A stretch of 41,796 bases of DNA, taken from Oscillibacter sp. Lineage in GTDB: Bacteria; Bacillota; Clostridia; Oscillospirales; Oscillospiraceae. Positions within the stretch are counted from its first letter, which is position 1. Every line of letters starts with the position of its first letter. A program made the translations under genes and the position numbers. The stretch is taken from NCBI GenBank assembly GCA_017482345.1, contig JAFUNB010000020.1, positions 1 to 41,796 on the forward strand, read 5' to 3'. Positions 8,546-40,500 of this stretch are shown here, one piece after another. Below the pieces are notes generated by a model, which worked only from the letters and a program-made list of their open reading frames with translations, did no database searches and was not told the origin of the DNA.

Positions 8546-8564
8546 GTGGTCGGATTTCGACCAC
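8546..8564. repeat. Dispersed palindrome, copy 1
   Basis: GTGGTCGGATTTCGACCAC has 7-bp arms around a 5-nt centre. It sits exactly between the ImmA stop codon and the lipoprotein ribosome binding site. It belongs to the GTGTCSGAWTCSGACAC family found at other prophage positions. Confidence 0.55.
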
Positions 8565-8996
8565 TTACATGTAATACTCCACAGCGAGGTTGCCGTGGGT
8601 GTGCCAGCAGACGATCTTGCGCATGAACTGTTCGGTAACGCCGAACCGTTCGGCAAGCTGCCACATCTCGCGGCAGCCGTCGGCCACAGCCTGGTCCAGA
8701 TCGTCGGCGGAGACCAGGTGTTCGATGGCCCATTTATCAGCCCGGTTTTCGTGTCGCTGGCGGACGTCGAAGCGGGTGCGGGGGTTATAGAAGCTGCCGG
8801 TCTGGCAGTGGCCCAGTTCGTGGGCCAGAGAAACGGTCTCGTCGGCCACGGTGCCCATTTGCCAGGGGTCGATGGCGATGGCGCAGGAGCCGTCAGCGAG
8901 CTGCACGGAGAGGGAAGGGGTGGCGGCCAGATCGAACCAGTCCACCTGCACGCCGTGCCGCTCTGCGTAATCGTAGAGTGCGAGGGCGGTTTTCAT
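8565..8996 (-). CDS. ImmA/IrrE-family metallopeptidase
   Basis: A 143-residue protein; ATG 8996 lies 2 nt after the repressor stop codon. The zinc-protease motif HELGH is at residues 59-63 and a downstream glutamate region (ENRADKWAIEHL) provides the third ligand. In ICEBs1 and related prophages ImmA cleaves the adjacent ImmR-type repressor to allow induction. The gene pair here has the same arrangement, so the likely substrate is the repressor encoded at 8999-9373. Confidence 0.9.
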   Translation of the reverse strand: MKTALALYDYAERHGVQVDWFDLAATPSLSVQLADGSCAIAIDPWQMGTVADETVSLAHELGHCQTGSFYNPRTRFDVRQRHENRADKWAIEHLVSADDLDQAVADGCREMWQLAERFGVTEQFMRKIVCWHTHGNLAVEYYM

Positions 8997-8998
8997 CG

Positions 8999-9373
8999 TT
9001 ACTGCTTCTGTCTCCTCTGCTGCATCTTGAATGCGATGTACGCACGGGCGTCTTCCCACATGGCGTCCATTTCCTCCGGAGTCATGTCCGGATCAGCGCC
9101 GTTGAAGAAAGCGGCCTTAATATCGTCGTCTGTGATGGCAGTCGTCCCAACGTGGGCGACTGCTTTCTTTTTTGGGCCTTCGCCGGTGAGCAGGTACTCC
9201 GTAGTGGTCCCTAGTACCTCGGCGATTTGAGAAAGGCATCTCTGGTAGGATGCCAGCTTCCTCTTGCGCCACTCACTCACGCGCTGGGGCGGAATGCCAA
9301 GGGCGGCCGCGAAGTCTTTCTGCTCAGGGAACACTTCGTCGACCAGTTCAAAAATGCGGTCTACGGTATCCAA
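8999..9373 (-). CDS. CI/ImmR-like repressor (XRE family)
   Basis: A 124-residue protein; the TTG start at 9373 is 8 nt after GGAGG; in-frame GTGs farther up overlap the binding site. The XRE helix-turn-helix is at residues ~15-60 (QKDFAAALGIPPQRVSEWRK, LGTTTEYLLTG). The C-terminal half is a short helical region without a LexA-like peptidase, consistent with proteolysis in trans by ImmA. It probably binds the three AGGAAAATCCT-type operators just upstream, repressing the rightward early promoter and controlling its own synthesis. Confidence 0.9.
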   Translation of the reverse strand: MDTVDRIFELVDEVFPEQKDFAAALGIPPQRVSEWRKRKLASYQRCLSQIAEVLGTTTEYLLTGEGPKKKAVAHVGTTAITDDDIKAAFFNGADPDMTPEEMDAMWEDARAYIAFKMQQRRQKQ

Positions 9374-9403
9374 CGGAACCACCTCCACAAAATATGCACA
9401 GTT

Positions 9404-9478
9404 AGGAAAATCCTGATTTGTGCAGAGTTACAAAGTTTGAAAATCTTGAAAAACCGGATTGACAATCAGGAAAATCCT
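9404..9478. promoter_or_regulatory. Triple repressor operator
   Basis: Three related palindromes are centred at about 9409, 9442 and 9473. Two carry AGGAAAATCCT exactly (9404-9414, 9468-9478) and the middle one is TTGAAAATCTT. The third is part of a larger perfect palindrome AATCAGGA-AAA-TCCTGATT. Centre spacings are 33 and 31 bp, about three helical turns, as in lambda-type operators. The third lies in the spacer of the rightward promoter. Confidence 0.75.
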
Positions 9479-11686: not shown

Positions 11687-12433
11687 ATGGCGGAAAGCGC
11701 CCGGAGCCCGGCCTATTTCGCAATCATCCCGGCGAACGTCCGGTACCACACGGCGCTGTCGCCCAACGCGAAGCTGCTGTACGGAGAGATCACGGCTCTG
11801 GCAGACCAGACCGGCTACTGCTGGGCCTCCAACAAGTATTTGGCGGAGCGGTTCCTGTGGGGCGAGCGCACGGTGAGCCGCCTGATCGCCCAGATGCAGG
11901 AGCTGGAACTGATCACCATAGAGATGGTCCCAGTGAAGAATGGCCGGGAGCGGCGCATCTTCGTGGGGCAGACAGTGGCAGGGGGTCTCGCCAAAATTGG
12001 CGACACCCCATCTCGCCAAAATTGGCTAGGGGGTCTCGCCAATATTGGCGACCAGAATAATAAAGAAGAAGATATTCCCCCCTATAATCCCCCCAAGGGG
12101 GATGAGAAGCCTCGCCGGCGGACACACAAGTGGACGGCGGACTGGAATCCGGATCGCTTTGAGGCCTTCTGGACCTACTACCGGACCCACGTCCGGCCGG
12201 AGAACCGGCAGGCGGCCATCCGGGCCTGGGACAAGCTGCAGCCCAGCGACGAGCTGATCGCCCGCATCGGGCGGGCACTGCAGAAGCAGCTCCAGACGCA
12301 GGCCTGGAAGGACGGCATCGGGATCCCATACGCCTCCACCTACCTGAACAACGCCCGCTGGGAGGACGCAGAGGGCCTGCCGGATCCTCCGGCTGAGACG
12401 GTACCGAAGGAGGCATACGGATGGCAGCAGTGA
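11687..12433 (+). CDS. Phage replication initiator / replisome organiser (winged-helix)
   Basis: A 248-residue protein; ATG 11687 lies 4 nt after the previous stop with GAAAGGGAG upstream. An N-terminal winged-helix domain (YFAIIPANVRYHTALSPNAK, ALADQTGYCWASNKYLAERF, RTVSRLIAQMQELELI) is typical of phage replication initiators. A linker whose DNA holds three iterons follows, then a C-terminal DnaD/primosome-like helical region (FEAFWTYYRTHVRPENRQAA, IPYASTYLNNARWEDAEG) that would recruit helicase. It overlaps dnaB by 13 bp. By analogy with lambda O it binds its own coding region to start replication. Confidence 0.85.
   Translation: MAESARSPAYFAIIPANVRYHTALSPNAKLLYGEITALADQTGYCWASNKYLAERFLWGERTVSRLIAQMQELELITIEMVPVKNGRERRIFVGQTVAGGLAKIGDTPSRQNWLGGLANIGDQNNKEEDIPPYNPPKGDEKPRRRTHKWTADWNPDRFEAFWTYYRTHVRPENRQAAIRAWDKLQPSDELIARIGRALQKQLQTQAWKDGIGIPYASTYLNNARWEDAEGLPDPPAETVPKEAYGWQQ
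11989..12085. promoter_or_regulatory. Putative replication origin (three iterons plus AT-rich tract)
   Basis: Three palindromic CGCCAA-WW-TTGGCG units (11989-12002, 12014-12027 with a last-base change, 12037-12050) are spaced 25 and 23 bp. An AT-rich tract (12055-12085) follows, all inside the initiator gene. This is the classical layout of a phage origin embedded in the initiator gene. Confidence 0.75.
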
Positions 12434-13845
12434 CGCAGGAGGAAAAGCTGGATCACCAGCTGGACGCCGAGCGGGCCGTGCTGGGCTCGGTGCTGATCGA
12501 CGAGGGCGTCGTGAAGGACGTGGTGGCCCAGGTGGACGCCAAGGACTTCCTGGACGCCACCAACCGCATGATCTTCCAGGCGGTGCGGGCGCAGTTCCGC
12601 TCCGGCGAACCGGTGGACGCCATCACGGTGCGCAGCCGGATCGGCGAGCAGTACTCGGAATACCTGCTGCAGCTGATGGAGATCACGCCCACCAGCGCAA
12701 ACTGGCCGGTATACGCCCGCCTGATGCACGAGCAGGCCACGCTGGGCCGGATCCGCGATCTGGCGGACAAGCTGCTCACAGCCGCCACTCTGGAGGACTG
12801 CCGGCCGCTGTCGGCCGATTTGGGGCAGCTGCTGGCCGAGGGGCGGCAGCTCTCCACCTGGACGGCCAAGGAGATGCTGGAGGACTTCTTCGCGGCCCAG
12901 GAGGACCAGGGCGGTGTGGAATACATCGACACCGGCATCCGGGAAGTGGACGAGGGCAGCTACATAGAGCGGGGCGACGTGATCGTGATCGGCGGCCTGC
13001 CCTCCAGCGGCAAAACGGCGCTGGCCCTGATGATGGCCCACCGGATGGCCCGCAAGTACAAGGTCGGCTTTTTCTCCCTGGAGACGGACAAGCGGAAGAT
13101 CCGCGACCGAGCGCTGGCCCACGTCATGCAGATCGACTTCGCTGCCATTAAGCAGCGGGCGCTGGACGAGAGCGACTGGGAGGCCGTGGCGGCCAAGGGC
13201 GCCGACTTCAGTGGTCGGAATCTGACCGTTCTGGAGGCCAGCGGCCTGACGGCCACGGAGATCCAGGCCATCACCCAGGCCTACGGCTTCGACGTGATCT
13301 TCATCGACTATGTGCAGCTGATCACACCGGAACTCGACCGGCGGGCCAACCGCAGCGATCAGATGGCGGACGTCAGTCGCTCGCTGCACGTCTTCGCCCA
13401 GAAGTCCAAGACGCTGGTGGTGGAGCTGGCGCAGCTGAGCCGACCGGAAAAGGCCGCCGGCTGGCGGGAGCCGGAGATGCAGGATCTGAAGGAGTCCGGC
13501 CAGTTTGAGCAGGACGCTGACCTGATCTTCATGCTCTACAAGGCCCACCCCAAGGACGACAACTACGGCGGCGAGCACCGGGACCGGTACCGCATCCTGA
13601 AGATCGCCAAGAACAAGGAGGGCCGCACCGGCAAGTGGCCCATGTTCTTCGACGGCAGCCGCCAGACCTTCTCCACCATCGTGCCCGGAGAGGTGAAGAA
13701 GGACAGTCAGGAGATCCTCCGGGATCTGGTGGACGCCGGCAAGGCCGCCAAGGCCAGGAACCGCAACCGGCCTCTGCCGGGCCAGCAGACCATGGTGAAA
13801 ATCACAGAGCTGAAGGGCGACGCCGCCAAGGACGTGCCCTTCTGA
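12421..13845 (+). CDS. dnaB: Replicative DNA helicase, DnaB family
   Basis: A 474-residue protein. ATG 12421 overlaps the end of the initiator gene. The N-terminal DnaB domain (DAERAVLGSVLIDEGVVKDV) is followed by the RecA-like motor: Walker A GGLPSSGKTA near residue 192, VGFFSLETDKRKIRDRALA (motif H1a region), FIDYVQLI (Walker B), LSRPEKAAGWREPEMQDLKE and the Arg-finger region. It unwinds the fork for phage replication. No separate helicase loader gene is seen, so the initiator may load it. Confidence 0.95.
   Translation: MAAVTQEEKLDHQLDAERAVLGSVLIDEGVVKDVVAQVDAKDFLDATNRMIFQAVRAQFRSGEPVDAITVRSRIGEQYSEYLLQLMEITPTSANWPVYARLMHEQATLGRIRDLADKLLTAATLEDCRPLSADLGQLLAEGRQLSTWTAKEMLEDFFAAQEDQGGVEYIDTGIREVDEGSYIERGDVIVIGGLPSSGKTALALMMAHRMARKYKVGFFSLETDKRKIRDRALAHVMQIDFAAIKQRALDESDWEAVAAKGADFSGRNLTVLEASGLTATEIQAITQAYGFDVIFIDYVQLITPELDRRANRSDQMADVSRSLHVFAQKSKTLVVELAQLSRPEKAAGWREPEMQDLKESGQFEQDADLIFMLYKAHPKDDNYGGEHRDRYRILKIAKNKEGRTGKWPMFFDGSRQTFSTIVPGEVKKDSQEILRDLVDAGKAAKARNRNRPLPGQQTMVKITELKGDAAKDVPF
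13213..13227. repeat. Dispersed palindrome, weak copy within dnaB
   Basis: GGTCGGAATCTGACC matches the family with one mismatch between arms. It is read in a different frame from the other coding copies. Confidence 0.35.
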
Positions 13846-13853: not shown

Positions 13854-14045
13854 ATGGAAATCGGAGGCACTGTGCTGGCGTCGCCCACGTATTACTCCAA
13901 CTCCGGCCTGGAGCGGGTGATCCCGCAGGAGGCCAAGGTGGTGTATATCAACGAGGCGCACTGCTACTACACCCTGGAATTCACGGTGAACGGGCATAAA
14001 TTCCGTGAATCCTTCAAGTACATACCGAAAGGACGAAAGACATGA
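13854..14045 (+). CDS. Small phage protein of unknown function
   Basis: A 63-residue protein; ATG 13854 follows GAGGAGG by 4 nt, 8 nt after dnaB. It is probably beta-rich (VVYINEAHCYYTLEFTVNGH, FRESFKYIPKG). It overlaps the parA start by 4 bp, so it is part of the dnaB-parA-parB operon. Confidence 0.65.
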   Translation: MEIGGTVLASPTYYSNSGLERVIPQEAKVVYINEAHCYYTLEFTVNGHKFRESFKYIPKGRKT

Positions 14046-14803
14046 GAACGATTGCGATTTTGAACCTGAAGGGCGGCGTGGGAAAGACGCTGACCGCGGC
14101 CACCATGGCCCGGTGCCTGACGGACGATCATCACAAGCACGTGCTGCTGATCGACGACGACCCCCAGGGCAACCTGAGCGACTGCTTCGGGGTGACAGAC
14201 CGCAGCAACAGCACCTGGGAGCTGCTGACGGGCGGCGGCGATTACTGGCCGGACTTCGTGACGGATCTGAGCCCGCTGCTTTCCATCATCCCGGCGGACA
14301 TGAGCCTGGCCTACGCCGACATCCGGCGGGAGGTGGTGGATCTTCGGGCCATTGATGACCTGCGGCAGACGCTGGACGAGGACGAGGCCTATGATTTCTG
14401 CATCATCGACCTGCCGCCCTCTCTGGGCCTGGCTACCCAGGCGGCGCTGTTCGCCGCGGACGAGGTGATCATCCCCATCCGGCTGGACACATTCTCCACC
14501 AGCGGCATGGCCCAGCTGGCATGGCAGGTGAACGAGATGCGCAAACTGAACCCCCGCATCCGGGTGGCCGGCATCCTGGGCACCCAGTTTCTGGGCACGG
14601 ACGAGGAGAAGGACATCCACCGCTGGCTCCACATAAACGCGGGGATGCCGGTGTTCCGGCAGACCATCCGCATGAGCAAGCCGGTGCTGGGCAGTGTTAA
14701 CCGCCATGTGAGCCTGCTGGCCCACTCGCCCCGCTGCGGTGCGGCCATCGACTACCGGCGCTTTGTCAAGGAGTATCTGAGAGGGGTGAAGAAGCGTGGG
14801 TGA
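14042..14803 (+). CDS. parA: ParA/Soj-type partition ATPase
   Basis: A 253-residue protein with the deviant Walker A motif LNLKGGVGKTLT (residues 7-18), the VLLIDDDPQGNLSDCFG switch region and FCIIDLPPSLG (Walker B-like). It has no N-terminal HTH, so it is the small (type Ib/Soj-like) form. ParA forms ATP-dependent patches on the nucleoid that position ParB-bound DNA. The ParB gene overlaps its end by 8 bp. Unusual on an integrated prophage: it may act when the phage replicates or persists as a circle. Confidence 0.9.
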   Translation: MRTIAILNLKGGVGKTLTAATMARCLTDDHHKHVLLIDDDPQGNLSDCFGVTDRSNSTWELLTGGGDYWPDFVTDLSPLLSIIPADMSLAYADIRREVVDLRAIDDLRQTLDEDEAYDFCIIDLPPSLGLATQAALFAADEVIIPIRLDTFSTSGMAQLAWQVNEMRKLNPRIRVAGILGTQFLGTDEEKDIHRWLHINAGMPVFRQTIRMSKPVLGSVNRHVSLLAHSPRCGAAIDYRRFVKEYLRGVKKRG

Positions 14804-16178
14804 GACTTACAGTGTGGCCGATGTTCTGGCCCAGCAACTGGGCGTGTCGAAATCTGACACGGGCCTGCGGTCTATTTCCATCGCACGGATCGCCCCGAAC
14901 AAGCGGAATTTCTATCCCCGCGTGGAGGACTTCGAGGGCCTGAAGGACAGCATCCAGGCCAACGGTCTGCTGGAGCCTCTGACGGTGGTTCCCGGCGACG
15001 GCCCGAACACGTACCGCCTGATCAGCGGCGAGAACCGGTACCGGGCCATCCGGGCCCTGTACGAGGAGAGCGGCTTCGACCGGCGCTGGGAGGAGGTCAC
15101 CTGTCTGGTGCTGCCGGCCATGACGGAGGAGCAGGAGCAGTGTGCGGTGATCGAGTCCAACCGCCAGCGGAAGAAATCCGGCGCGCTGCTGGCCGAGGAG
15201 GCCCGCAAGCTGACGGAAATCTACGTGAAGCGCAAGGAGGCCGGCGAGGAGCTGCCGGGCCGCATCCGCGACCGGGTGGCCGAGGCTCTGAAGGTGTCCA
15301 GCACGAAGCTGGCCACGCTGAACGCCATTCAGGAGAATCTGGCGGTGCCGGGCTTCGTCCGGGACTGGAAGGAGGAGCGAATCAGCGAGTCCGTGGCCTA
15401 CGAGATCAGCAAGCTGGACCGGGAGACGCAGTACCGCCTGTTGGACTGGAAGATCGACAACCACCGGACGCTGACCATTGGCGACGTGAAGACATTCGAC
15501 CGGATGTGGAACCACTGCAAGCGCAGCTGCCCCCACACCGGCGGACTGTGCCCCAACGCGGAGCGCATGATCCGGGACAAGTTCCGGGTGGACAGGTTAA
15601 GCTGCGCCGGCTGCTGCGAGTACTGCCTGAGCCGTTTGTACTGCGCCACAGCCTGCCAGTACGTCCCCAAGGAGGAGCAGCCCGAGCCGGAGCGGAACAA
15701 GGCTCTGGAGGATCCCAGGCTGGACTGGAAGAACATCAAGGCCTGCTTTCAGGCCCGCCTGCAGCACGCACGCGAGCAGACGGGACTGAGCCGCAAGGAG
15801 TTCGCCGAGAGTATCGGCGAATACCCGGCCACATACAGTGCCTGGGAAAACGGCAATCTGCCCGGCTGCGACCGGATGCCGAAGTTGGCTCTGGCTCTGG
15901 GCGTGACCACGGATTATCTATTCGGCCTGACGGACGAACCGGGTGCAGCTGTGCCGCAGCCGGAACCGGCTGCGGAGGAAGCGCAGCCCGCGGCCCCGCT
16001 GGCGTGGTATCCCGCGACTGTGAAGCCGGAGCTCGGACAGGACATCATCGTCGTGGACTTTGCCGGTGTTGCAGATGACTTTATTTATCGGGGAGATGAC
16101 TTGCTGTACCACGGGTTCCCGTGGAGCGACGTGGCGTTCTGGACGCCCGCACCCACCGAGGCACAGCAGCCGGAATGA
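14796..16178 (+). CDS. parB: Multidomain ParB-like protein with Cys cluster and XRE domain
   Basis: A 460-residue protein; the GTG start at 14796 overlaps parA. The ParB N-terminal domain covers residues ~25-115 (GLLEPLTVVPGDGPNTYRLI, then SGENRYRAI) and the HTH part ~115-200 (EEQCAVIESNRQRKKSGAL). A cysteine-rich segment follows at ~245-290 (HCKRSCPHTGGLC, CAGCCEYC, CATACQYV), which may bind zinc or an Fe-S cluster. A second, XRE-type DNA-binding domain lies at ~310-380. The tail resembles DUF551 (WYPATVKPELGQDIIV, DVAFWTP). One dispersed palindrome (14843-14861) lies in its first codons. A double DNA-binding ParB could link partition with regulation. Confidence 0.85.
   Translation: MGETYSVADVLAQQLGVSKSDTGLRSISIARIAPNKRNFYPRVEDFEGLKDSIQANGLLEPLTVVPGDGPNTYRLISGENRYRAIRALYEESGFDRRWEEVTCLVLPAMTEEQEQCAVIESNRQRKKSGALLAEEARKLTEIYVKRKEAGEELPGRIRDRVAEALKVSSTKLATLNAIQENLAVPGFVRDWKEERISESVAYEISKLDRETQYRLLDWKIDNHRTLTIGDVKTFDRMWNHCKRSCPHTGGLCPNAERMIRDKFRVDRLSCAGCCEYCLSRLYCATACQYVPKEEQPEPERNKALEDPRLDWKNIKACFQARLQHAREQTGLSRKEFAESIGEYPATYSAWENGNLPGCDRMPKLALALGVTTDYLFGLTDEPGAAVPQPEPAAEEAQPAAPLAWYPATVKPELGQDIIVVDFAGVADDFIYRGDDLLYHGFPWSDVAFWTPAPTEAQQPE
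14843..14861. repeat. Dispersed palindrome, copy within parB
   Basis: CGTGTC-GAAATCT-GACACG has 6-bp arms and the usual centre. It encodes V-S-K-S-D-T, the same reading frame used by three other coding copies. Confidence 0.5.
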
Positions 16179-16610: not shown

Positions 16611-16759
16611 TCCCAGGGCCCGGCAGGCGGCGCCATCCAGCCGCTCTGCCGGTCGCCCATTCCGGCAGACCCCGCCGGCATAGCGGAGGCCTCCTCGGCT
16701 TGTTTGTCAGTTGCTGACGTCCCTTGTCTTCACCTGGCGCCGCCTGCCGGGCCCTGGGA
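16611..16759 (+). ncRNA. Candidate structured RNA closed by a perfect 25-bp inverted repeat
   Basis: Bases 16611-16635 and 16735-16759 are perfect reverse complements (25 bp, GC-rich). The 99 nt between contain further self-complementarity: TCTGCCGG/CCGGCAGA (8 bp), CCGCT/AGCGG enclosing it, and GTCAG-TTG-CTGAC. No open frame crosses it, and the next gene has its own AAAGGAGG downstream of the closing arm. It may be a noncoding RNA, a cis-acting mRNA element, or a DNA structure. The alternative of a small transposon-like element is weakened because the flanks show no target duplication. Confidence 0.45.
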
Positions 16760-18299: not shown

Positions 18300-18717
18300 C
18301 AAAATTTTTCTGATGGGCCGCCTGACCCGGGATCCGGAGCTGCGGAAGACCGCCAGCGGCACGCCGGTGGTGTCCTTCTCCATCGCCGTTGACCGGGACT
18401 TCAAGGGCCCGGGCGGCGAGCGGGAGACGGATTTCATCGACATCGTCGCATGGCGCAGCACGGCGGAGGTCGTCAGCAAGTATTTCTCCAAGGGCCGCAT
18501 GGCCGTCGTGGAGGGCCGGCTCCAGATCCGGGATTGGACGGACAGGGACGGCGGCAAGCGCCGCAGCGCTGAGGTGGTAGCCGACAACGTCTACTTCGGC
18601 GACAGCAAACGGTCGAATTCGGACACAGCTCCGGCAGGCGAGTACGGCGCCGCACCCGGCGCACATGGAGGCGACTTTGCGGAGCTCGGCGAGGAAGACA
18701 GTAATCTGCCGTTCTGA
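18292..18717 (+). CDS. ssb: Single-stranded DNA-binding protein
   Basis: A 141-residue protein; ATG 18292 is in the SD-rich end of the upstream gene (GAGGAGGAAGTTA). It has an OB fold from MLNKIFLMGRLTRDPELR through DFIDIVAWRSTAEVVSKYFS, then a Gly/Ser linker and the acidic tip EEDSNLPF that docks replication partners. It binds single-stranded DNA at the phage fork. A weak copy of the dispersed palindrome encodes S-N-S-D-T in its linker. Confidence 0.95.
   Translation: MLNKIFLMGRLTRDPELRKTASGTPVVSFSIAVDRDFKGPGGERETDFIDIVAWRSTAEVVSKYFSKGRMAVVEGRLQIRDWTDRDGGKRRSAEVVADNVYFGDSKRSNSDTAPAGEYGAAPGAHGGDFAELGEEDSNLPF
18611..18626. repeat. Dispersed palindrome, weak copy at the end of ssb
   Basis: GGTCGAATTCGGACAC shows the right half of the consensus fully and the left half partly. 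Confidence 0.3.
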
Positions 18718-21340: not shown

Positions 21341-21353
21341 GCCAGGAGGGACG

Positions 21354-21366
21354 GTCGGAATCCGAC
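21354..21366. repeat. Dispersed palindrome in the packaging intergenic region
   Basis: GTCGGA-A-TCCGAC is a perfect 13-bp core of the GTGTCSGAWTCSGACAC family, in noncoding DNA about 45 bp before the first structured motif. Confidence 0.55.
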
Positions 21367-21408
21367 ACGCATGAGAGCCGGGGGGAACCGGCGAAGAGAA
21401 TCCGGGGT

Positions 21409-24746: not shown

Positions 24747-24765
24747 GTGGTCCGATTCGGACCAC
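24747..24765. repeat. Dispersed palindrome after terL
   Basis: GTGGTCCGATTCGGACCAC is a perfect 19-bp palindrome in the 39-nt gap after terL, just before the ribosome binding site of the next gene. Confidence 0.65.
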
Positions 24766-28206: not shown

Positions 28207-28536
28207 ATGGCGTGGGATGAGGGTGTGAGCGCCGCTCTCATGAACTACTGCAGGATCGACGAGCTGATCGACGGCGACGGCGATGATCTGCGGGAGGCTT
28301 ATGAGAGCGCGGTGGCCTACATGGCCGCGGCGGGCGTGCGGGAACCGGAGCGCGGTTCGGAACGCTACGCCCAGTGGATGCGCTGCATCAAGGCCCTGGT
28401 CTTGGACGACTGGGACAACCGGGGCACGCAGACGGCCGGGCAGGCCCTTGCGGACAACCTCGCATTCCGGCGCCGCCTGAACCAGCTGAAATTGACCGAG
28501 CCGGTGTCCGATTCGGACACCGGCGCCGGTGAGTAA
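28207..28536 (+). CDS. Head-tail connector (gp6-like)
   Basis: A 109-residue protein; ATG 28207 with CGGAGG upstream. An all-helical connector pattern LMNYCRIDELIDGDGDDLRE, AVAYMAAAGV, YAQWMRCIKALVLDDWDNRG, LNQL follows the capsid gene as in HK97 and SPP1. The last codons contain the longest dispersed palindrome (28501-28523). Confidence 0.85.
   Translation: MAWDEGVSAALMNYCRIDELIDGDGDDLREAYESAVAYMAAAGVREPERGSERYAQWMRCIKALVLDDWDNRGTQTAGQALADNLAFRRRLNQLKLTEPVSDSDTGAGE
28501..28523. repeat. Dispersed palindrome, longest copy
   Basis: A perfect 23-bp palindrome: 11-bp arms around a central T, core GTGTCCGATTCGGACAC. It lies in the last codons of the connector gene, encoding V-S-D-S-D-T. Confidence 0.65.
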
Positions 28537-30339: not shown

Positions 30340-30343
30340 CAAT

Positions 30344-30385
30344 AGCGCCACGGGCGGAGTTTTCTCCGCCCGCGCTGCCATTTTT
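30344..30385 (+). terminator. Terminator-like hairpin after the major tail gene
   Basis: CGGGCGGAG-TTTT-CTCCGCCCG (30351-30372), extended by AGCG/CGCT with a bulge, is followed after 4 nt by TTTTT. It probably reduces read-through into the less expressed tail chaperone genes. Confidence 0.6.
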
Positions 30386-30451
30386 GACCGGACTGGAGCC
30401 GATAGAAAACTGCCCGACGAAGAACGGGGCGACGAGAGGAGCTGCAATCGC

Positions 30452-30850
30452 TTGAAAACCGTGGAATTTCCCCTGGATGGGGTCACATATCACCTGTGCC
30501 TTACCGGATACGCGCTGTTCGACAGCTTTGACCACTTCGGCTGCGGCACAGAGTTCATCGAGAAGATCTCCGGCGAGAATCGGGAGAGCTTTCTGGCCAC
30601 CTGCTGGTGTCTGGAGCGGTTCTCTCAGGCCGGCGCCATCGTTCGCCGGTGGGAAAGCGACGGCAAGGACAAGACGCCTGTGCTTCCGGCACAGAAAGCG
30701 GCGGCGCTGATGCGGCCGCGGGATGTGATCCGGGCCCGGGACGCCATCCGGGAGGCCTTCGCTCTTGCCTTCGGCCGGGAGGAGGCCCGGGAGGACGAGG
30801 AGATCGACCTGGGCTGGCTGGAATTGCAAAAAAAAACGGAAGACGACTGA
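30452..30850 (+). CDS. Tail assembly chaperone G
   Basis: A 132-residue product; TTG 30452 is the best start (GAGGAG at 10 nt; no ATG in frame). Helical features: VTYHLCLTGYALFDSFDHFG, REAFALAFGREEARE, LGWLELQKKTEDD. In lambda-like phages this protein coats the tape measure before tube polymerisation. Near its end an A9 run (30828-30836) gives the slippery A-AAA-AAA in the correct frame for a -1 shift into the extension below. Confidence 0.85.
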   Translation: MKTVEFPLDGVTYHLCLTGYALFDSFDHFGCGTEFIEKISGENRESFLATCWCLERFSQAGAIVRRWESDGKDKTPVLPAQKAAALMRPRDVIRARDAIREAFALAFGREEAREDEEIDLGWLELQKKTEDD

Positions 30851-30993
30851 GCCGGGCCAAGTACCTCCAGTGGGTGACGCAGTTTCTGCGCCTGGGCGTG
30901 CAGGAGGGGATGCTGCTGGCGCCGGGTACCGTGCTGGATCTGATGGAGCTGGAGATTGACCGGCGGAACCTTCGGAAGGAGGGACACACCTAA
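30452..30993 (+). CDS. Tail assembly chaperone GT (-1 frameshift product)
   Basis: A -1 shift at A-AAA-AAA (30829-30835) joins the G frame to a second frame reading KNGRRLSRAKYLQWVTQFLR, LGVQEGMLLAPGTVLDLMEL and ending at TAA 30991-30993. The stop overlaps the tape-measure ATG by one base. The fused product would be about 180 residues. This arrangement, just before the tape-measure gene, is the conserved G/GT programmed frameshift of long-tailed phages; only a minority of ribosomes are expected to shift. Confidence 0.85.
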
Positions 30994-32597: not shown

Positions 32598-32606
32598 GGA
32601 GGAGCC

Positions 32607-32981
32607 ATGAGGAATCGTTTCAAGATCGACGGGGTGGATTTTTCCGCCCTGGTCAACAAATACGGCTACTCCGTCCATTACATCCCCCGCGAGGGCCGGC
32701 TGGGCGGCATGATGTTGGACGGATCCTACACGCCGGACGTGCTGGCGTGGAAGGCCGTGGTGGAGCTGCCCTGCAACGATCTGACGGCCGATGACCTGTC
32801 GAATCTGCTGATGGCCTGCATGAAGCAGGAGATCACGGTGGAGTTTCAGGACACGAAGACGGGCGCACCGCGGACGGCCGTTTTCATCAAGGCGGATCTC
32901 AGCCCGCAGACCATGAATCTGATCACCCCGGCCGGTGTGCGTTGGTACACCGGCATGGTGCTGAGTATCGAGGAGAAGTGA
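32607..32981 (+). CDS. Small tail protein
   Basis: A 124-residue protein; ATG 32607 after AAGGAGG. Beta-rich: RFKIDGVDFSALVNKYGYSV, VLAWKAVVELPCNDLTADDL, RWYTGMVLSIEEK. Found between tape measure and baseplate hub, so probably a distal-tail or tube-tip component. The family was not identified with certainty. Confidence 0.7.
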   Translation: MRNRFKIDGVDFSALVNKYGYSVHYIPREGRLGGMMLDGSYTPDVLAWKAVVELPCNDLTADDLSNLLMACMKQEITVEFQDTKTGAPRTAVFIKADLSPQTMNLITPAGVRWYTGMVLSIEEK

Positions 32982-32982
32982 C

Positions 32983-35058: not shown

Positions 35059-35061
35059 TTT

Positions 35062-36267
35062 ATGGCAGAATCTTTGAAACCTTATGATTCTCCCCACACG
35101 GGAGAAGACATGGATCTGGGAATCAGCCGCGCTTTGCCTGGTGGTGAGATTGACAAAACCCATGTGGTCAAAACATACAGCGCTCTGGATCAGATCGGCC
35201 TTTCCGCCGGTATCGAGACGATGAAGGCTATCGCCCAGGCGCTGAGCGATAATTCCCAAATTACCTATTCCGCAGCAGGAGGCAACGACGTGGCGGACGG
35301 CTCGGCTTATCCCGTCAGTAGCGGCGCAGCCATCACGGCCGGCACGCTGTTCGCCCATCGCGTCAACGCCAATCAGGTGTTCTTTGAGTTTTCCACGGCA
35401 TCTGGCGTGTGGGTGGGCTTCTGGTCTGGCAGCTGGAGCGGCTGGGCACAGATCTATGATGCCCGGAACAAGCCCACGGCGGCTGACGTTGACGCTCTGG
35501 CGTTGGATGGTTCTAACGAAATGGGCGCAGATGTGGTTGTGCGGAAGAGCACCTATCCGTCTTTGCGTTTGATTGCCGACGCATCCGGCAGAGGCGGTGT
35601 CATTCAGCAGACCAGCACAAACCTGCTGATTCGACACTACGACGTGTACGGAGACAACAGTAATTATCGCTCTCTCATGATCGGAGATGGATCTGACCTG
35701 AATGCGGTAATTCGGTTTGCTGTTGCAAAAGACGGCGTAATCAAATATTACAACCTGCTCCACACCGGCAATCTGGCGGAGGTAGGCGGCGGCAGCTATT
35801 CCGGCTTGGTCATGCTGAAGACCTTGACCGTCGAGGCTGACGACGTGAACGAGTTGGAGTTTCAGCTGACGGCTGCGGAGCTGAGTAAGTACAAGCGGTT
35901 CGTGATCATTCCAAAGCTGGAGGGTGAGTACGAGTCCAACTATAGTAACTACCTGTTGCTGGAGGCACCTACATACAGCGGAGAACCAACCCTGGACCTA
36001 GGTACGTCTTACGGCTACTGCTCCAACGGCGTGGCTTTGATCGCAGTCGGCACGGAGAACAGCGCCTACGGCTGGTCGCTGCACATGATGGCACTGAGAC
36101 CGTATACGGCTGACGATGACAATGCCGAATTTGGGCATGTAGTCACAGGCAGAAGTACCAGCTCCTACCAGCACCCGACCACTGACCCGCTTACATTCCG
36201 GCTCTATACATCATCGAACAGCCCGTTCATCAAGGGCGGTACGGTATCCATCATGGGGGTGAACTGA
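35062..36267 (+). CDS. Tail fibre protein
   Basis: A 401-residue protein; ATG 35062 after GAGGAATG. The N-terminal attachment part (DLGISRALPGGEIDKTHVVK) is followed by a pyocin-knob-like module (FFEFSTASGVWVGFWSGSWS, GWAQIYDARNKPTAADVDAL), the fibre motif KYYNLLHTGNLAEVGGGSY and a C-terminal beta domain that may bind the cell surface. It probably extends from the hub encoded just upstream. Confidence 0.8.
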   Translation: MAESLKPYDSPHTGEDMDLGISRALPGGEIDKTHVVKTYSALDQIGLSAGIETMKAIAQALSDNSQITYSAAGGNDVADGSAYPVSSGAAITAGTLFAHRVNANQVFFEFSTASGVWVGFWSGSWSGWAQIYDARNKPTAADVDALALDGSNEMGADVVVRKSTYPSLRLIADASGRGGVIQQTSTNLLIRHYDVYGDNSNYRSLMIGDGSDLNAVIRFAVAKDGVIKYYNLLHTGNLAEVGGGSYSGLVMLKTLTVEADDVNELEFQLTAAELSKYKRFVIIPKLEGEYESNYSNYLLLEAPTYSGEPTLDLGTSYGYCSNGVALIAVGTENSAYGWSLHMMALRPYTADDDNAEFGHVVTGRSTSSYQHPTTDPLTFRLYTSSNSPFIKGGTVSIMGVN

Positions 36268-36420
36268 ATGAAACGAGCAATTTATAAGGACGGTGTGATC
36301 AGTTATGAGGAATCGCCAGTGCGGCCCGACAAGAAGCCTCTGGCCGAAGTGACGCCCACCGTCTGGGACGAGCTGGACGCAGCCTATCAGGAAGGAGTGA
36401 ACAAGGCCTATGAACAGTAA
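36268..36420 (+). CDS. 50-residue fibre-associated protein
   Basis: ATG 36268 directly follows the fibre stop codon (TGAATG) with GGGGGTG upstream. Sequence begins MKRAIYKDGVISYEESPV and ends WDELDAAYQEGVNKAYEQ. No family recognised. It overlaps the next gene by 11 bp and is part of the fibre block. Confidence 0.55.
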   Translation: MKRAIYKDGVISYEESPVRPDKKPLAEVTPTVWDELDAAYQEGVNKAYEQ

Positions 36421-36859
36421 AGACCGCGTGCTGGCGCGAGAGCGTCAGCGGGGCAGGGAGGCTGCGCTGGATCTGGCGGCGAGAGCGCCGGATCTTGACG
36501 GCACCGCCATCATCGCCGAGGAGGAGAATGTCCCGGCTTTCGACCCTACCTTTGACTATTCCGGCCTTGCGGCCGGCTCTCCCGTCCGGGATGAGGGCCA
36601 GGTGTGGCAGCTGATCCAGCCTCACAACGCCGCCCACTACACCGGCCGGCCCGCCACGCTGCGGGCGCTGTGGAGCCTGTGCCACACGAAGGATCCCGCC
36701 CGGGCGAAGCCCTGGGTGGACGCCTACGGCACCAGCGGCATGTACATGACCGGCGAGTGCTATCTGGCAGCGGACGGCACCGTGAAGCGCGCCAAGCAGG
36801 ACAATCTGGTGCATGACGCAGAGGCTTATCCCGCAGGATGGGAGGATGTGACGACATGA
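36410..36859 (+). CDS. Tail protein with CBM5/12-like segment
   Basis: A 149-residue protein; ATG 36410 within the previous gene. After a charged N terminus, residues ~60-148 (VWQLIQPHNAAHYTGRPATL, KPWVDAYGTSGMYMTGECYL, AEAYPAGWEDV) resemble chitin-binding/CBM5-12-like repeats seen in phage tail proteins and enzymes. A glycan-binding role at the tail tip is plausible. It overlaps the next gene by 4 bp. Confidence 0.65.
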   Translation: MNSKDRVLARERQRGREAALDLAARAPDLDGTAIIAEEENVPAFDPTFDYSGLAAGSPVRDEGQVWQLIQPHNAAHYTGRPATLRALWSLCHTKDPARAKPWVDAYGTSGMYMTGECYLAADGTVKRAKQDNLVHDAEAYPAGWEDVTT

Positions 36860-37821
36860 TCATTTTCAACAACTGGCAGATCACGATCTCCGGCGTAATC
36901 GCTCAGCAGTATGACCATATGACCCGCAAAATCGAAGTCGTGGGAGATCTCCCGGCCGAGTATGCGTGGTCGTTGTTGGTGGAGTGCGGCGACAACAAGG
37001 ACACGCTGGCTTTGGCTCGTACCGCGTCTGGTGCATACACCTACCTCACCAAAGACAACCTCTCCGTGGCCGGATATTACAAACTGCAGCTGCGGGGCAA
37101 TCTGATCGAGGACGTCAGCAAGACCCGGCACACAAATCAGGTGCAGGCCTATATCCCGGCCTCTCTCACTGGTGTCGGCGAGTGGCCGGCGATGCCCTCT
37201 GAGTTCGCCCAGATCGAGCAGCGTCTGCTGAACATCAACACGCATCCTCCGATCCCCGGCGATGACGGATTCTGGCACCTGTGGGACGGCGAGGCATATG
37301 TCAAGTCTGAACTGGTGGTCCCGGTTGATCCGAATGGCTACTCCCTGTATTACAGCAGTGAACATATGAGCGCTAAGATCCCCGAGATGTCACTTGCTTC
37401 CGTCCAGTTGAATGGGAAGACCCTGCGCGGCGGAGATTTTGTGCTCACGGTGAACGGCTGCATTTATCGGGTCGCTCGGATTAAGGATGACAGCGTATTC
37501 CTTGCTTATCTGTGCTGCTCGCTCCGGGGTACACGCATCTACACCACCAGCGAGTCCCGTACACAAACAAACACCTCACTGACCCGGTCAGCTATCGAGC
37601 TGGGGGAAAATGTGCTGTATCGGGGGGACTTCATCCTCGCAGCGAATGGATATCTGTATGAAGTCAAGCAAGACTTTACGACGGAGTCGACGACCATCTC
37701 GGCAACGCTGCGCTGCGTCCTGAAGGGCGATCCCGGCAACGTACTGACGGCGCCGGACGGCACCCGGTATGAGCTCGGCGTTGACAATGCCGGCAACCTG
37801 ACCACCACAAAACTTTCCTGA
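36856..37821 (+). CDS. Tail/baseplate protein
   Basis: A 321-residue protein from ATG 36856 (GGAGG at 10 nt, ATGA overlap). An N-terminal Ig-like beta region (WQITISGVIAQQYDHMTRKI) is followed by repeats around YRGDFILAANGYLYEV / LRGGDFVLTVNGCIYRV. It ends in TRYELGVDNAGNLTTTKL, a C-terminal module also present at the end of the 38029 gene. BppU-like baseplate proteins of Firmicutes phages start similarly. Confidence 0.7.
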   Translation: MIIFNNWQITISGVIAQQYDHMTRKIEVVGDLPAEYAWSLLVECGDNKDTLALARTASGAYTYLTKDNLSVAGYYKLQLRGNLIEDVSKTRHTNQVQAYIPASLTGVGEWPAMPSEFAQIEQRLLNINTHPPIPGDDGFWHLWDGEAYVKSELVVPVDPNGYSLYYSSEHMSAKIPEMSLASVQLNGKTLRGGDFVLTVNGCIYRVARIKDDSVFLAYLCCSLRGTRIYTTSESRTQTNTSLTRSAIELGENVLYRGDFILAANGYLYEVKQDFTTESTTISATLRCVLKGDPGNVLTAPDGTRYELGVDNAGNLTTTKLS

Positions 37822-37837
37822 GAAGGGGGATTTAATT

Positions 37838-38029
37838 ATGGCTTATAAAATTATTCGCGACTCCAAGAACTTCCACCAGTACGGCCGCGAGATCGTCGCC
37901 ATCCTGGACACCGACGCCGATCTGGCCAATCTGGGCACGGACTTTGCCCCCGGCTCTATGGCCATCGTGGCAAAGCAGGGCGGCAACACCTACATGATGA
38001 ATGCATCTGGCAGCTGGGAGGTGCAGTGA
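37838..38029 (+). CDS. Small tail-associated protein
   Basis: A 63-residue protein; ATG 37838 after AGAAGGGGG. MAYKIIRDSKNFHQYGREIV, then GSMAIVAKQGGNTYMMNASG, is a type I know from Clostridia phages next to fibre genes, probably a beta-structured fibre accessory. The stop overlaps the next ATG. Confidence 0.65.
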   Translation: MAYKIIRDSKNFHQYGREIVAILDTDADLANLGTDFAPGSMAIVAKQGGNTYMMNASGSWEVQ

Positions 38030-39858
38030 TGGCTTTTGATCCTATTGATCTGGCCCTGATCCGCAAACTGGGCGGCGGTAAACTCCCCTTCGGCAAGGAA
38101 ACCACCGTGGAAGAGATTTTCCCTGCACAGGAACTTAGCCTGGGCAGATTTGGAAGGTGCGAACTGCCTGACCTTCTGCCCATTAAATTGGGCGAGGAGT
38201 ACAAAGTTGTGTGGGATGGAGTTGAGTATCACTGCATCGCAAAAGAGGGCTTTGCCGAGTATTCTACGAACGCCACGACTTGGGTTACTGTCAGTGTAAT
38301 TGTCCTCGGCAGCGGTCTGAACGCTTGTTGGGGAGAAGAACCGACGGATGAGCCTTTTGAAATTCTTTTTGCAAAAAATGCCGACGATGCTTATGCGCTT
38401 GGATACGGTATGGAATTCAATCTTGGTGACTACGAGTATAGTAGCCCTGTCCTGTCTATCTGGGGCAACGTCGAGATAGTCCACACCATTGATCCGGAAT
38501 ATTTTGCCTCAGACAACGGCCCCCACCGTGTGCTGACGACTGATGCTGCCGGCAACGCGAAGTGGGAGGAGAAAGCCTTCTACAGCGAGGTGGGTGACGT
38601 TGAGGTAGTGCCCGAGACCACGGTCGCCATCGACCCGTCGGAAAACAGCTACATTGGGACGGACGCCTACCTTCTGGAGGCCGGCAAGGCCTATGTCGTC
38701 AAGTGGAACGGTGTAGAGTATCCCTGCGACACTATTGCGTATGCAGAAGGTGACACAGACCTCGGCGTAATACTCGGCAACTATGGTGCGCTGACGGGTG
38801 GCGCGTCCACCGGCGAGCCGTTTGTTATGGTGTTCTTGTACCCTTCTATGGCGGCAGAGATGGGCATGGGCATGATGGTCGTCGCTATGGACGGCTCCGC
38901 ATCGGCAACCTTCTCCATCCGTTTCAAGGGAGAAGTCGTTTATCCGCTGGATAACAAATACCTCAACCTGGCCTGGCTGCCTACCACGGAGAAGGGCGCC
39001 ACGCTGATGGAGGAGACGGCGCTTGACCTTACCAATGCGACGGCGCTCACCCTCGCATATAGTCCCGCCGAAACGCAGCCCCTGATTATCTTCTTTGACG
39101 GCGTTCGACACTACTGCGAGCCTGCAACCAACGAGGGCACCCTGTGCTACGGCAGCGGCAACCCGTTTACCATCATGGTTATGAGCGGGGTATATAGTAT
39201 TGTGGCTGCCGTACCTGGTGCTCACACTGTAGCCGTCTATGACCCCAGCGGAGAAGGCAAGATTTACAACATCATGCCGACGGCGTTTTTGCCGAGTATG
39301 GCATTCAAGTCTGGCAAGGCATACGGCTCCGCCCGATCTGCTGGTGCTGTAACGGAGTCCGACGCCTATGCGCTCGGCCAGTATGCCGTCGCGGAAGGGT
39401 GGAAAACTCAGGCACCCGGCAAATCTGCTCACGCCGAGGGTGAGAAGTCGATTGCGTCTGGAGTAGGCGCACACGCCGAGGGAAATAGCACGGCCTCGGG
39501 AACTTACGCTCATGCCGAGGGAACCAGCACGGATGCGTCTGATAACTATTCTCACGCGGAGGGTATTGGTGCTAAAGCGACTGCTGTTGGCTCTCATGCC
39601 GAGGGCTTTTATACAATCGCAGCGTCCGATTACCAGCACGTCCAGGGCAAGAACAACGTCGAGGACGCTACCGGGGAATATGCCCATATCGTAGGCAACG
39701 GCAAAGGCGGCTCGGACCGCTCCAACGCCCACACCCTGGACTGGGAAGGCAACGCCTGGTTTGCGGGCGGCATCGAGCTGACCAGCCCCAGCGGCAAACG
39801 CTTCAGGTTCTCCGTTGACGACAGCGGCAACCTGACCGCCACGGAGGTAACCGAGTGA
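38029..39858 (+). CDS. Large tail fibre with YadA-head-like repeats
   Basis: A 609-residue protein; ATG 38029 with GGAGG at 7 nt (TGATG overlap). Three related beta modules of ~120 residues share (V)xWDGVEYxC/VKWNGVEYPC/FFDGVRHYC. Residues ~460-550 form left-handed beta-roll repeats (SAHAEG, GAHAEG, YAHAEG, YSHAEG, GSHAEG) as in the YadA head, a trimeric adhesin fold. The end KRFRFSVDDSGNLTATEV matches the tail of the 36856 product. Likely a trimeric receptor-binding fibre. Confidence 0.8.
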   Translation: MAFDPIDLALIRKLGGGKLPFGKETTVEEIFPAQELSLGRFGRCELPDLLPIKLGEEYKVVWDGVEYHCIAKEGFAEYSTNATTWVTVSVIVLGSGLNACWGEEPTDEPFEILFAKNADDAYALGYGMEFNLGDYEYSSPVLSIWGNVEIVHTIDPEYFASDNGPHRVLTTDAAGNAKWEEKAFYSEVGDVEVVPETTVAIDPSENSYIGTDAYLLEAGKAYVVKWNGVEYPCDTIAYAEGDTDLGVILGNYGALTGGASTGEPFVMVFLYPSMAAEMGMGMMVVAMDGSASATFSIRFKGEVVYPLDNKYLNLAWLPTTEKGATLMEETALDLTNATALTLAYSPAETQPLIIFFDGVRHYCEPATNEGTLCYGSGNPFTIMVMSGVYSIVAAVPGAHTVAVYDPSGEGKIYNIMPTAFLPSMAFKSGKAYGSARSAGAVTESDAYALGQYAVAEGWKTQAPGKSAHAEGEKSIASGVGAHAEGNSTASGTYAHAEGTSTDASDNYSHAEGIGAKATAVGSHAEGFYTIAASDYQHVQGKNNVEDATGEYAHIVGNGKGGSDRSNAHTLDWEGNAWFAGGIELTSPSGKRFRFSVDDSGNLTATEVTE

Positions 39859-40199
39859 TCATTGAACTGACGCCGCAGACCATCATCACGGCCGGCTCTG
39901 TCCTGGCGGCCGTCGTGCTACTGGTGAAGCACTTCGCCAAGGGCGTCCGCTGGGTGGACAAGCAGGACCAGCAGAGTGTGGATCTGGAAGCCCTGAAGCA
40001 GAAGCACGAGGCCGATATGGATGCCCTGAAGGCCGTCCTGGCGAGGGACATGCACGACATCAACACCGAGCAGACCCTGCTCACCTACGGCGTGCTGGCC
40101 TGCCTGAAGGGACTGAAGGAACAGGGGTGCAACGGCCCTGTGACGGAGGCCATCAACAAGATCGAGAAGTATCTGAACCAGAAAGCACACGAAGATTGA
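39855..40199 (+). CDS. Membrane protein with coiled coil, lysis cassette
   Basis: A 114-residue protein; the GTG at 39855 overlaps the fibre stop with CGGAGG upstream. One transmembrane helix (IITAGSVLAAVVLLVKHFA) is followed by a coiled coil (SVDLEALKQKHEADMDALKA) and a helical tail. It is the first of three membrane proteins before the lysozyme. Candidate holin-like or antiholin-like protein; similar proteins are common at this place in Clostridia phages. Confidence 0.65.
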   Translation: MIIELTPQTIITAGSVLAAVVLLVKHFAKGVRWVDKQDQQSVDLEALKQKHEADMDALKAVLARDMHDINTEQTLLTYGVLACLKGLKEQGCNGPVTEAINKIEKYLNQKAHED

Positions 40200-40209
40200 G
40201 GAGGCCGCA

Positions 40210-40500
40210 ATGAGTGGTAATCGAGTCAAAAAAACGCCCACCAGTAACCTGATCGCCGTCGGGATCCTGCTGGTGGACGCCGCGGCCACCTTTGCTGTCC
40301 TCGCCCTGTGCGCGCTGGCCATCTGGCGGGACTTCCTGGGCGCACTGCCGTATCTGACCACGCTCATCGGCGCGCTGCAGGCCGCCACGGCCGTGGTGCT
40401 CCGGGGCTACTACGGCAAATCCACCGCAGAAAACACAAAGGGCGGCATCGTCTACGACACCGCCCTGGGCGTGTCGGAATCCGACACGGGAGATCTATAG
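40210..40500 (+). CDS. Two-helix membrane protein, holin candidate
   Basis: A 96-residue protein; ATG 40210 after GAGGAGG. A basic N terminus and two transmembrane segments (LIAVGILLVDAAATFAVLAL, ALPYLTTLIGALQAATAVVL). The C terminus encodes V-S-E-S-D-T in a dispersed palindrome. Size and topology suit a holin or antiholin. Confidence 0.6.
   Translation: MSGNRVKKTPTSNLIAVGILLVDAAATFAVLALCALAIWRDFLGALPYLTTLIGALQAATAVVLRGYYGKSTAENTKGGIVYDTALGVSESDTGDL
40470..40488. repeat. Dispersed palindrome at the end of a holin-like gene
   Basis: CGTGTCGGAATCCGACACG is a perfect 19-bp palindrome in the last codons of the two-helix membrane protein gene. Confidence 0.65.

What the first reader, a model, noticed from the sequence alone, without database searches (positions are those of the whole stretch)
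8546..40488. A family of GTGTCSGAWTCSGACAC palindromes scattered over the whole prophage
Perfect or near-perfect copies lie at 8546, 14843, 21354, 24747, 28501 and 40470, with weaker ones at 13213 and 18611. The longest is a 23-bp perfect palindrome. Most sit between genes or in the last codons of genes. Four of five coding copies are read in the same frame (V/R-S-x-S-D-T), which suggests selection on DNA rather than on protein. I saw no comparable copy in the host flank. Two hypotheses: parS sites for the phage ParB, one copy lying in parB's own first codons; or stoperators bound by a phage HTH protein to silence transcription in the lysogen. They differ clearly from the repressor operators at 9404-9478.
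Basis: partly seen in the sequence, partly recalled or inferred. Interest (0 to 1): 0.75.

Follow-up and report, generated by a model that had tools for sequence, protein, structure and literature searches.

The report
Scattered centromere sites in a prophage
The palindromes strewn through this integrated phage are very probably docking sites (parS) for the phage's own DNA-partition protein ParB; related phages carry matching sites, often at the same places in the genome, and the protein and the sites appear to change together.

Summary
The palindromes are real and lie inside a 35.4-kb prophage (6325-41691) in a tRNA-Pro gene (26-bp att repeat). Nine places are within one mismatch of KGTCNGANTCNGACM, 0.47 expected; none in the left host flank. 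At the general consensus the rest of the genome has none, apart from a duplicate contig.

They are most likely parS sites of the prophage's ParB (14796-16178), beside ParA. ParB was found in 26 of 120 palindrome-bearing viral stretches and 0 of 88 control stretches. Starting from ParB (191 loci), 167 of 283 perfect 17-bp palindromes begin GTG; 63 of these lie inside parB, 17.4 expected. Sites recur at the parA-parB and terL-portal junctions and the head-tail adaptor 3' end. Half-site base 6 tracks one ParB recognition-helix residue best of 240 columns: C with Arg in 56 of 61, A with non-Arg in 11 of 11; correction for relatedness leaves no power.

Phage ParABS and N15's four centromere repeats are known; this motif family, its fixed stations and its coexistence with integrases look new. 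Binding and partition are inferred. 19 of 48 motif-bearing records show no ParB.

The parts
6325..6350 (.). attL: 26-bp repeat identical to the 3' end of tRNA-Pro
   Evidence: exact 26-bp match to 41666-41691
41666..41691 (.). attR: same 26 bp, within tRNA-Pro(cgg) 41666-41741 (-)
6395..7456 (-). tyrosine integrase
   Evidence: PF00589 E=5.9e-17; phrog_1
14042..14803 (+). parA, Walker-type ATPase
   Evidence: PF13614 E=8.3e-37; phrog_164 ParA-like
14796..16178 (+). parB: ParB_N domain (24-87), central HTH with recognition helix about residues 168-178 (T174 is aligned with the residue that tracks parS base 6), Cys-rich stretch, C-terminal XRE HTH (about 316-386)
   Evidence: PF02195 E=2.4e-7, HTH_19 E=4.3e-10; phrog_8 match 317-386; profile match to solved ParB/Noc chains; association. 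Helix limits are my reading of the alignment.
8546..8564 (.). parS-like site GTGGTCGGATTTCGACCAC, just upstream of the probable ribosome-binding site of the gene at 7539 (-)
13213..13227 (.). weak site inside dnaB; may be chance (1 site in the body of 102 distinct dnaB homologues)
14843..14861 (.). site in the first codons of parB (VSKSDT); station also used in relatives
   Evidence: sites at the 3' end of parA in 43 of 165 homologues
18610..18626 (.). weak site near the 3' end of ssb
21352..21368 (.). site downstream of the HNH gene (13-bp perfect core)
24747..24765 (.). site at the terL-portal junction, 19-bp perfect palindrome; station also used in relatives
28500..28524 (.). site in the last codons of the head-tail adaptor gene, 25-bp perfect palindrome; station also used in relatives
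40470..40488 (.). site in the last codons of gene 40210-40500, 19-bp perfect palindrome

Best explanation
The palindromes are dispersed parS (centromere) sites of a phage ParABS system. A dimer of the phage ParB reads each palindrome through its central helix-turn-helix; by analogy with studied ParBs it then loads as a CTP-dependent clamp and spreads, and ParA moves the coated DNA. Several loading stations along 35 kb would let ParB mark the whole phage chromosome whenever it is extrachromosomal (after infection or excision). [quoted passage not shown] Inferred: binding, CTP clamp loading, and partition as the benefit. Confidence that they are ParB sites is about 0.9; that partition is their main use, about 0.6.
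For: Palindrome-first: a ParB profile hits 26 of 120 palindrome-bearing IMG/VR stretches (25 of these also hold ParA) and 0 of 88 stretches fetched with the reversed pattern. On whole records, 29 of 48 match the ParB profile at E<=0.001, 26 of them at E<1e-70, against 1 of 47 control records, a weak match to the DUF3850 end only. ParB-first: 167 of 283 perfect 17-bp odd palindromes in 191 loci begin GTG; the next commonest trinucleotide has 8. 63 of the 167 have their centre inside parB, 17.4 expected. Stations: sites within 60 bp of the 3' end of parA (the parA-parB junction) in 43 of 165 homologues (1.65 expected), of terL in 9 of 70 (0.70) and of the head-tail adaptor gene in 6 of 8 (0.08); HNH 3 of 91 (0.91); portal 0 of 48, MCP 0 of 17, protease 0 of 27, dnaB 0 of 94, head closure 0 of 9, rep 0 of 121. 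Specificity: base 6 is best predicted, of 240 ParB columns, by the residue aligned with T174 (MI 0.69 of 0.71 bits; 0.84 of the entropy after subtracting the shuffled mean; z 15). It aligns with the Asn of SRAHVAN in the solved ParB chain 4umk, which by motif I match to Caulobacter N178, listed as a parS contact in PMC7383237. Geometry: of 258 pairs of complementary arms GTG[TC]C[CA] 2-15 bases apart, 237 are exactly 5 apart. The host genome has its own parS, TGTTTCACGTGAAACA, 3 copies.
Against: No binding data. 97 of 191 ParB-first loci show no perfect GTG palindrome in the stretch held. 19 of 48 palindrome-first records have no ParB match (several are short fragments) and 3 of the 29 matches are weak or partial; of the 22 of those records with two or more sites, 15 have a strong ParB match and 7 do not. 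Record G305 has six sites and a ParA, but ParA's neighbour is a DUF3102-like protein (name recalled) and no ParB was found. Relatedness: other ParB columns also track base 6 (next best 0.64 and 0.62 of the entropy, outside the HTH); base 6 changes 4 times on the best tree but starred branches force only 1, so the independent-pairs test has no power; Fisher p=1.4e-9 ignores relatedness. The reversed-pattern control rules out chance but its contigs may come from other phage lineages. The A1 profile contains ParBs from some of the records searched. The ParB-first queries came from palindrome-bearing contigs plus phage Cormatin, so the two directions are not fully independent, and the 191 loci hold near-duplicates (81 ParB loci with a site, below 80% identity, over all loci). 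The window ParB lacks the canonical ParA-binding motif and a recognised C-terminal dimerisation domain.
Confidence: 0.9

Rival explanations
1. Stoperators or operators: a phage repressor or other XRE protein binds the palindromes to silence transcription in the lysogen.
For: Several sites lie at gene junctions just upstream of ribosome-binding sites; the window has several HTH proteins; ParB itself carries a C-terminal XRE domain.
Against: Among palindrome-bearing loci BLASTP finds 8, 7 and 3 distinct proteins like the window's two XRE proteins and repressor, against 30 for ParB and 32 for ParA. The ParB C-terminal XRE is in 2 of 30 aligned ParBs. Sites are symmetric; stoperators of phage L5 are asymmetric and oriented (recalled).
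Confidence: 0.05
2. RNA elements: the palindromes act in mRNA as hairpins (processing, stability or translation control between cistrons).
For: Gene-junction position; a 6-bp stem with a 5-nt loop could form (inference, not folded).
Against: Spacing between complementary arms is 5 in 237 of 258 cases, and p7-p8 keep symmetry inside what would be the loop: 130 of 235 fully symmetric, about 15 expected at one in 16. Association with a DNA-reading ParB residue. No Rfam family at the sites.
Confidence: 0.02
3. The sites are ParB sites, but their main job is not partition: ParB coats or bridges the phage chromosome to silence genes, exclude related phages, or control replication or packaging.
For: 41 of 50 ParB-family viral records carry an integrase family over cut-off (my union) and this prophage is integrated, so stable inheritance need not depend on partition; two stations sit among late genes; the PNAS 2025 survey proposed other roles for phage ParB fusions.
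Against: 25 of 26 palindrome-bearing stretches with ParB also hold ParA, as expected for active partition.
Confidence: 0.3
4. Mobile mini-palindromes (REP-like) or codon/protein-driven repeats without a DNA-binding role.
For: Coding copies mostly share one frame (VS-x-SDT), tolerable in linkers.
Against: Same genomic stations in diverged phages with different half-sites; several copies intergenic; association with the ParB residue; [quoted passage not shown]
Confidence: 0.02

Closest known systems
Phage N15 sop system with four centromere repeats IR1-IR4
   Same: A temperate phage with ParA/ParB-type proteins and four single palindromes as centromere; IR1 reads GTGCGACCACGGTCGCAC in the oligonucleotide table of PMC7205306 (passages seen), so it too begins GTG and ends CAC.
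   Different: N15 prophage is a linear plasmid (PMC7205306 passages); this one is integrated in a tRNA gene with an integrase. The palindrome sequence differs. That the N15 IRs are dispersed is recalled; Ravin and Lane 1999 is not held.
parABS of cluster A mycobacteriophages (RedRock and others)
   Same: Phage-encoded partition cassette with parS sites.
   Different: [quoted passage not shown] Here single 17-bp palindromes are dispersed and integrase coexists.
ParB-CTPase-DUF3850 fusions of phages (PNAS 2025, PMC12704722)
   Same: 7 of 30 aligned ParBs carry DUF3850; that survey found the fusion consistently beside parA and CTP binding by a phage DUF3850 fusion.
   Different: The window ParB has an XRE C-terminus instead; the survey's main text holds no word beginning 'palindrom' and the passages seen give no parS for these proteins.
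Chromosomal ParB/Noc with parS/NBS (Caulobacter, Bacillus)
   Same: ParB_N domain plus central HTH; specificity carried by residues at the HTH-DNA interface (PMC7383237, passages and section 9).
   Different: Canonical parS is an even palindrome, TGTTTCACGTGAAACA; here an odd 17-mer GTGYCNRANTYNGRCAC. The host's own copies are the canonical type.

Membership tests
ParABS partition system | ParA Walker ATPase adjacent to parB | tested here: met
   PF13614 E=8.3e-37; the two reading frames overlap by 8 bp
ParABS partition system | ParB N-terminal CTPase-fold domain | tested here: met
   PF02195 E=2.4e-7, over cut-off; 26 of 30 aligned ParBs match
ParABS partition system | central HTH homologous to parS-reading HTH | tested here: met
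   profile alignment to ParB/Noc chains, running through the HTH for 4umk; no Pfam HTH model hit this part of the window ParB
ParABS partition system | canonical ParA-binding motif (L/F/I)G(K/R)G(L/F/I) at the N-terminus | tested here: not met
   absent by eye from the window ParB printed; the survey says divergent plasmid and prophage variants almost always lack it
ParABS partition system | C-terminal dimerisation domain | tested here: inconclusive
ParABS partition system | palindromic parS linked to parAB | tested here: met
   site in parB's first codons
ParABS partition system | ParB binds the sites and stabilises a replicon | not testable with these tools
   needs binding and plasmid-stability assays
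N15-type plasmid prophage | extrachromosomal prophage without integration | tested here: not met
   PF00589 integrase and 26-bp att repeats at tRNA-Pro
L5-type stoperators | asymmetric, oriented sites (recalled) | tested here: not met
   sites are palindromes
L5-type stoperators | read by the immunity repressor (recalled) | tested here: inconclusive
   repressor-like proteins seldom accompany the motif; binding not testable here

The most novel reading that the evidence does not exclude
A widespread class of integrating phages of gut Clostridia carries a dispersed centromere whose stations sit at fixed places in otherwise diverged genomes (parA-parB junction, terL-portal, head-tail adaptor end). 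ParB clamps loaded there act on the entire phage chromosome, not merely to segregate a plasmid but to hold, silence or prepare the excised genome; the sites and the ParB recognition helix drift together into dialects.
Probability: 0.25. Interest if true: 0.85.

Novelty: new variant of a known kind. Interest (0 to 1): 0.62.

Why it matters
It proposes a testable DNA target for a large family of phage ParB proteins (with XRE, DUF3850 or ASCH ends), for which a 2025 survey could suggest only RNA-related, anti-defence or phage-host roles (passages). It raises a concrete question: why do phages that integrate keep a partition system with many centromeres. It also offers a natural series of ParB/parS dialects (p6 C mostly with Arg, A with Gln and others) for studying how DNA specificity evolves, and possible orthogonal ParB-parS pairs for labelling DNA.

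Tried and rejected
Stoperator, RNA-hairpin and REP-like readings were considered and set aside for the reasons given under rivals. A single-protein scan with the window ParB found no relatives in viral contigs, so families were built from palindrome-bearing contigs instead. C34 was first taken as an independent relative; it is a duplicate. Associations of half-site bases p4 and p7 with ParB columns were weaker: for p4 the best column was L15, and S169 came third (K there in 10 of 12 p4=C rows against 10 of 61 p4=T rows; Fisher 1.4e-5, not corrected for relatedness; independent pairs uninformative); p7 showed no clear HTH column. Plasmid records hold no match to the window ParB at E<=1e-5. The HNH station suggested by Cormatin was not borne out (3 of 91, 0.91 expected). 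Literature: a search for six palindrome strings found 0 papers; the listings (several capped: 12 of 25, 15 of 48 and 12 of 537 papers listed) showed no title or abstract start on this motif; only open-licence PMC papers are searchable. No structure prediction could be run.

Rows dropped: 8 of 81 non-redundant ParB rows with half-sites outside the core type were left out of the association test, and the window and C34 were excluded from it. The integrase counts use 50 of the 58 records first listed. Searches covered 48 and 47 whole records, not all 120 and 88 stretches.
Full report
What is there. The window holds a prophage inserted in a tRNA-Pro gene: a 26-bp repeat at 6325-6350 and 41666-41691, the latter the 3' end of tRNA-Pro, with a tyrosine integrase at 6395-7456. 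Inside it lie six clear palindromes (8546, 14843, 21352, 24747, 28500, 40470) and two weak ones (13213, 18610). The best is a 25-bp perfect odd palindrome. Nine places match KGTCNGANTCNGACM with up to one mismatch; 60 first-order Markov sequences give a mean of 0.47 and a maximum of 4. None is in the left host flank. In the 1.63-Mb MAG the general consensus GTGYCNRANTYNGRCAC occurs 4 times, 3 in the window and 1 on contig C34, which is a 99.995% duplicate of window 21592-39848. With two mismatches allowed, other contigs have matches too, at the level of the reversed-pattern control.

Neighbourhood. The frames of parA (14042-14803) and parB (14796-16178) overlap. ParB has the ParB_N domain, a central HTH, a Cys-rich stretch and a C-terminal XRE HTH. 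One palindrome lies in parB's first codons. In relatives 49 of 62 palindromes wholly inside parB use this frame, which fits tolerance in disordered linkers (inference).

Motif outside this genome. In 102 of the 120 a site has complementary bases at its two outer N positions, about 30 being expected by chance, so this is a motif and not chance alone. The reversed pattern gave 88 stretches. A ParB profile hits 26 of 120 (24 of the 102 symmetric, 2 of the 18 others) and 0 of 88. Over whole records 29 of 48 match a ParB profile at E<=0.001, 26 of them at E<1e-70, against 1 of 47 controls, a weak match to the DUF3850 end. The profile includes ParBs from some of these records. In 300 genomes of the host's family 8 have the motif, the window's own included; the reversed pattern occurs in 3, once each. 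BLASTP of window proteins against palindrome-bearing loci gives 30 distinct ParB and 32 ParA hit proteins, 22 for terL, 7 for dnaB, and 8, 7 and 3 for two XRE proteins and the repressor.

From ParB to the motif. Three ParB sub-alignments (A2-A4) fetched 191 new loci from viral and genome contigs. In them, 283 perfect 17-bp odd palindromes of any sequence occur and 167 start with GTG; the next trinucleotide has 8. Half-sites vary: GTGTCCAA (33 loci), GTGTCCGA (28), GTGTCAGA (13), GTGCCCGA (10) and others. Of 39 loci with two or more sites, 27 use a single half-site. 63 of 167 have their centre inside parB against 17.4 expected. 97 of 191 loci show none in the stretch held. The queries came from palindrome-bearing contigs plus Cormatin, so this direction is not fully independent of the first, and the loci include near-duplicates; the new half-sites, however, were not selected for.

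Stations. Among ParB-first loci plus window and Cormatin, sites lie within 60 bp of the 3' end of parA in 43 of 165 homologues (1.65 expected), of terL in 9 of 70 (0.70) and of the head-tail adaptor gene in 6 of 8 (0.08). For HNH 3 of 91 (0.91 expected); for portal (48), MCP (17), protease (27), dnaB (94), head closure (9) and rep (121) 0. The window's 14843, 24747 and 28500 sites are at these stations. At one and the same station some phages have GTGTCCAA and others GTGTCCGA half-sites. Counting palindrome-selected loci as well, 15 sites lie within 100 bp of the 3' end of 21 distinct adaptor homologues.

Who reads the site. Across 73 non-redundant ParBs with core half-sites (8 others dropped), base 6 is best predicted among 240 columns by the residue aligned with window T174 (MI 0.69 of 0.71 bits; 0.84 of the entropy after subtracting the shuffled mean; the next columns reach 0.64 and 0.62 and lie outside the HTH). 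With C there, 56 of 61 have Arg; with A, 0 of 11 (Q 8, I, A, E); with G, 1 row, Glu. On a tree without the HTH columns base 6 changes 4 times, but starred branches force only 1, so the independent-pairs test has no power and Fisher p=1.4e-9 must be read with that in mind. T174 aligns with the Asn of SRAHVAN in the solved ParB chain 4umk (H. pylori, recalled), which I match by motif to Caulobacter N178, a listed parS contact (PMC7383237, passages and section 9 seen). The window's 16 half-sites carry G 9, C 5 and A 2 at this base, which would suit a short residue that does not choose; this is a guess.

DNA rather than RNA. Of 258 pairs of complementary arms of the type GTG[TC]C[CA], 237 are exactly 5 bases apart, and 130 of 235 keep full symmetry in the middle.

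Life style. 27 of 50 ParB-family viral records carry PF00589 and 18 of 50 PF07508 over cut-off; by my union of the two lists 41 of 50 carry at least one; a record may include host DNA. Cluster A mycobacteriophages instead swap one for the other (PMC7157519, passages). Phage Cormatin of Flavonifractor plautii has four exact sites (15329, 21480, 23600, 28505, the last in its parB, annotated hypothetical). PMC10197239 lists it among 13 induced prophages of a mouse consortium; by coordinates its region shows no Hi-C domain in Table 1 but gave virions (section 22 and passages seen). No PF00589 was found in its record; serine recombinases were not tested there.

Exceptions. G305 has six sites and a ParA whose neighbour is a DUF3102-like protein (name recalled), and no ParB; a profile of that protein's first 150 residues found only two other copies in the loci held, both in loci that also have ParB. 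G320 mixes two kinds of site, three of them with p6=G beside an Arg-type ParB. In all, 19 of 48 palindrome-first records have no ParB match; of the 22 with two or more sites, 7 lack a strong one.

What is known. Phage ParABS systems and N15's four palindromic repeats are known (PMC7205306, passages). The phage ParB-DUF3850/parA pairing and CTP binding were reported in 2025 without a site in the passages seen (PMC12704722). A search of open PMC text for six forms of the palindrome found nothing. I therefore call it a new variant of a known kind.

Noticed in passing
L160:3831-5060 (record G305): ParA is followed by a DUF3102-like protein (name recalled) instead of ParB in a phage record with six canonical palindromes; its putative HTH has an Arg six residues after a Ser, as in Arg-type ParBs. 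A second reader of the same site is possible.
   Followed up: partly
L170/L171 (record G320): Two kinds of site (GTGTCGGA and GTGCCCRA half-sites) are mixed in one phage record; one of the first kind lies by an integrase 55% identical to the window's.
   Followed up: partly
G000:C34 against window 21592-39848: Second contig of the MAG 99.995% identical to part of the prophage (one mismatch): assembly duplicate, a second copy or a strain variant.
   Followed up: partly
window 11980-12052: Three 25-nt copies of a repeat (72-100% identical) inside the replication-initiation gene 11687-12433, possibly iterons of the phage origin.
   Followed up: no
window 16611-16635 and 16735-16759: Perfect 25-nt inverted repeat 99 nt apart, about 430 bases after parB; unexplained.
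   Followed up: no
window 4831-6417: The reading frame of a DUF4417 phage-type gene spans the left att site, so the left 'host' flank may hold another mobile element at the same tRNA.
   Followed up: no
alignment A1 (30 ParBs): C-terminal ends of these ParBs differ: DUF3850 matched in 7, XRE HTH in 2, ASCH in 1.
   Followed up: partly
L287 1002 and 11344; L312 793 and 2364: Variant palindromes in ParB-family loci: even GTGTCCGGATCCGGACAC and odd GTGCCCACTGTGGGCAC.
   Followed up: no
G000:C25:195673-198136: Three copies of the canonical chromosomal parS TGTTTCACGTGAAACA mark the host's own, different, partition site.
   Followed up: no
   Followed up: no
window 1380-1456: Rfam reports a second, low-scoring tRNA (32.6 bits) in the left host flank that ARAGORN does not.
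   Followed up: no
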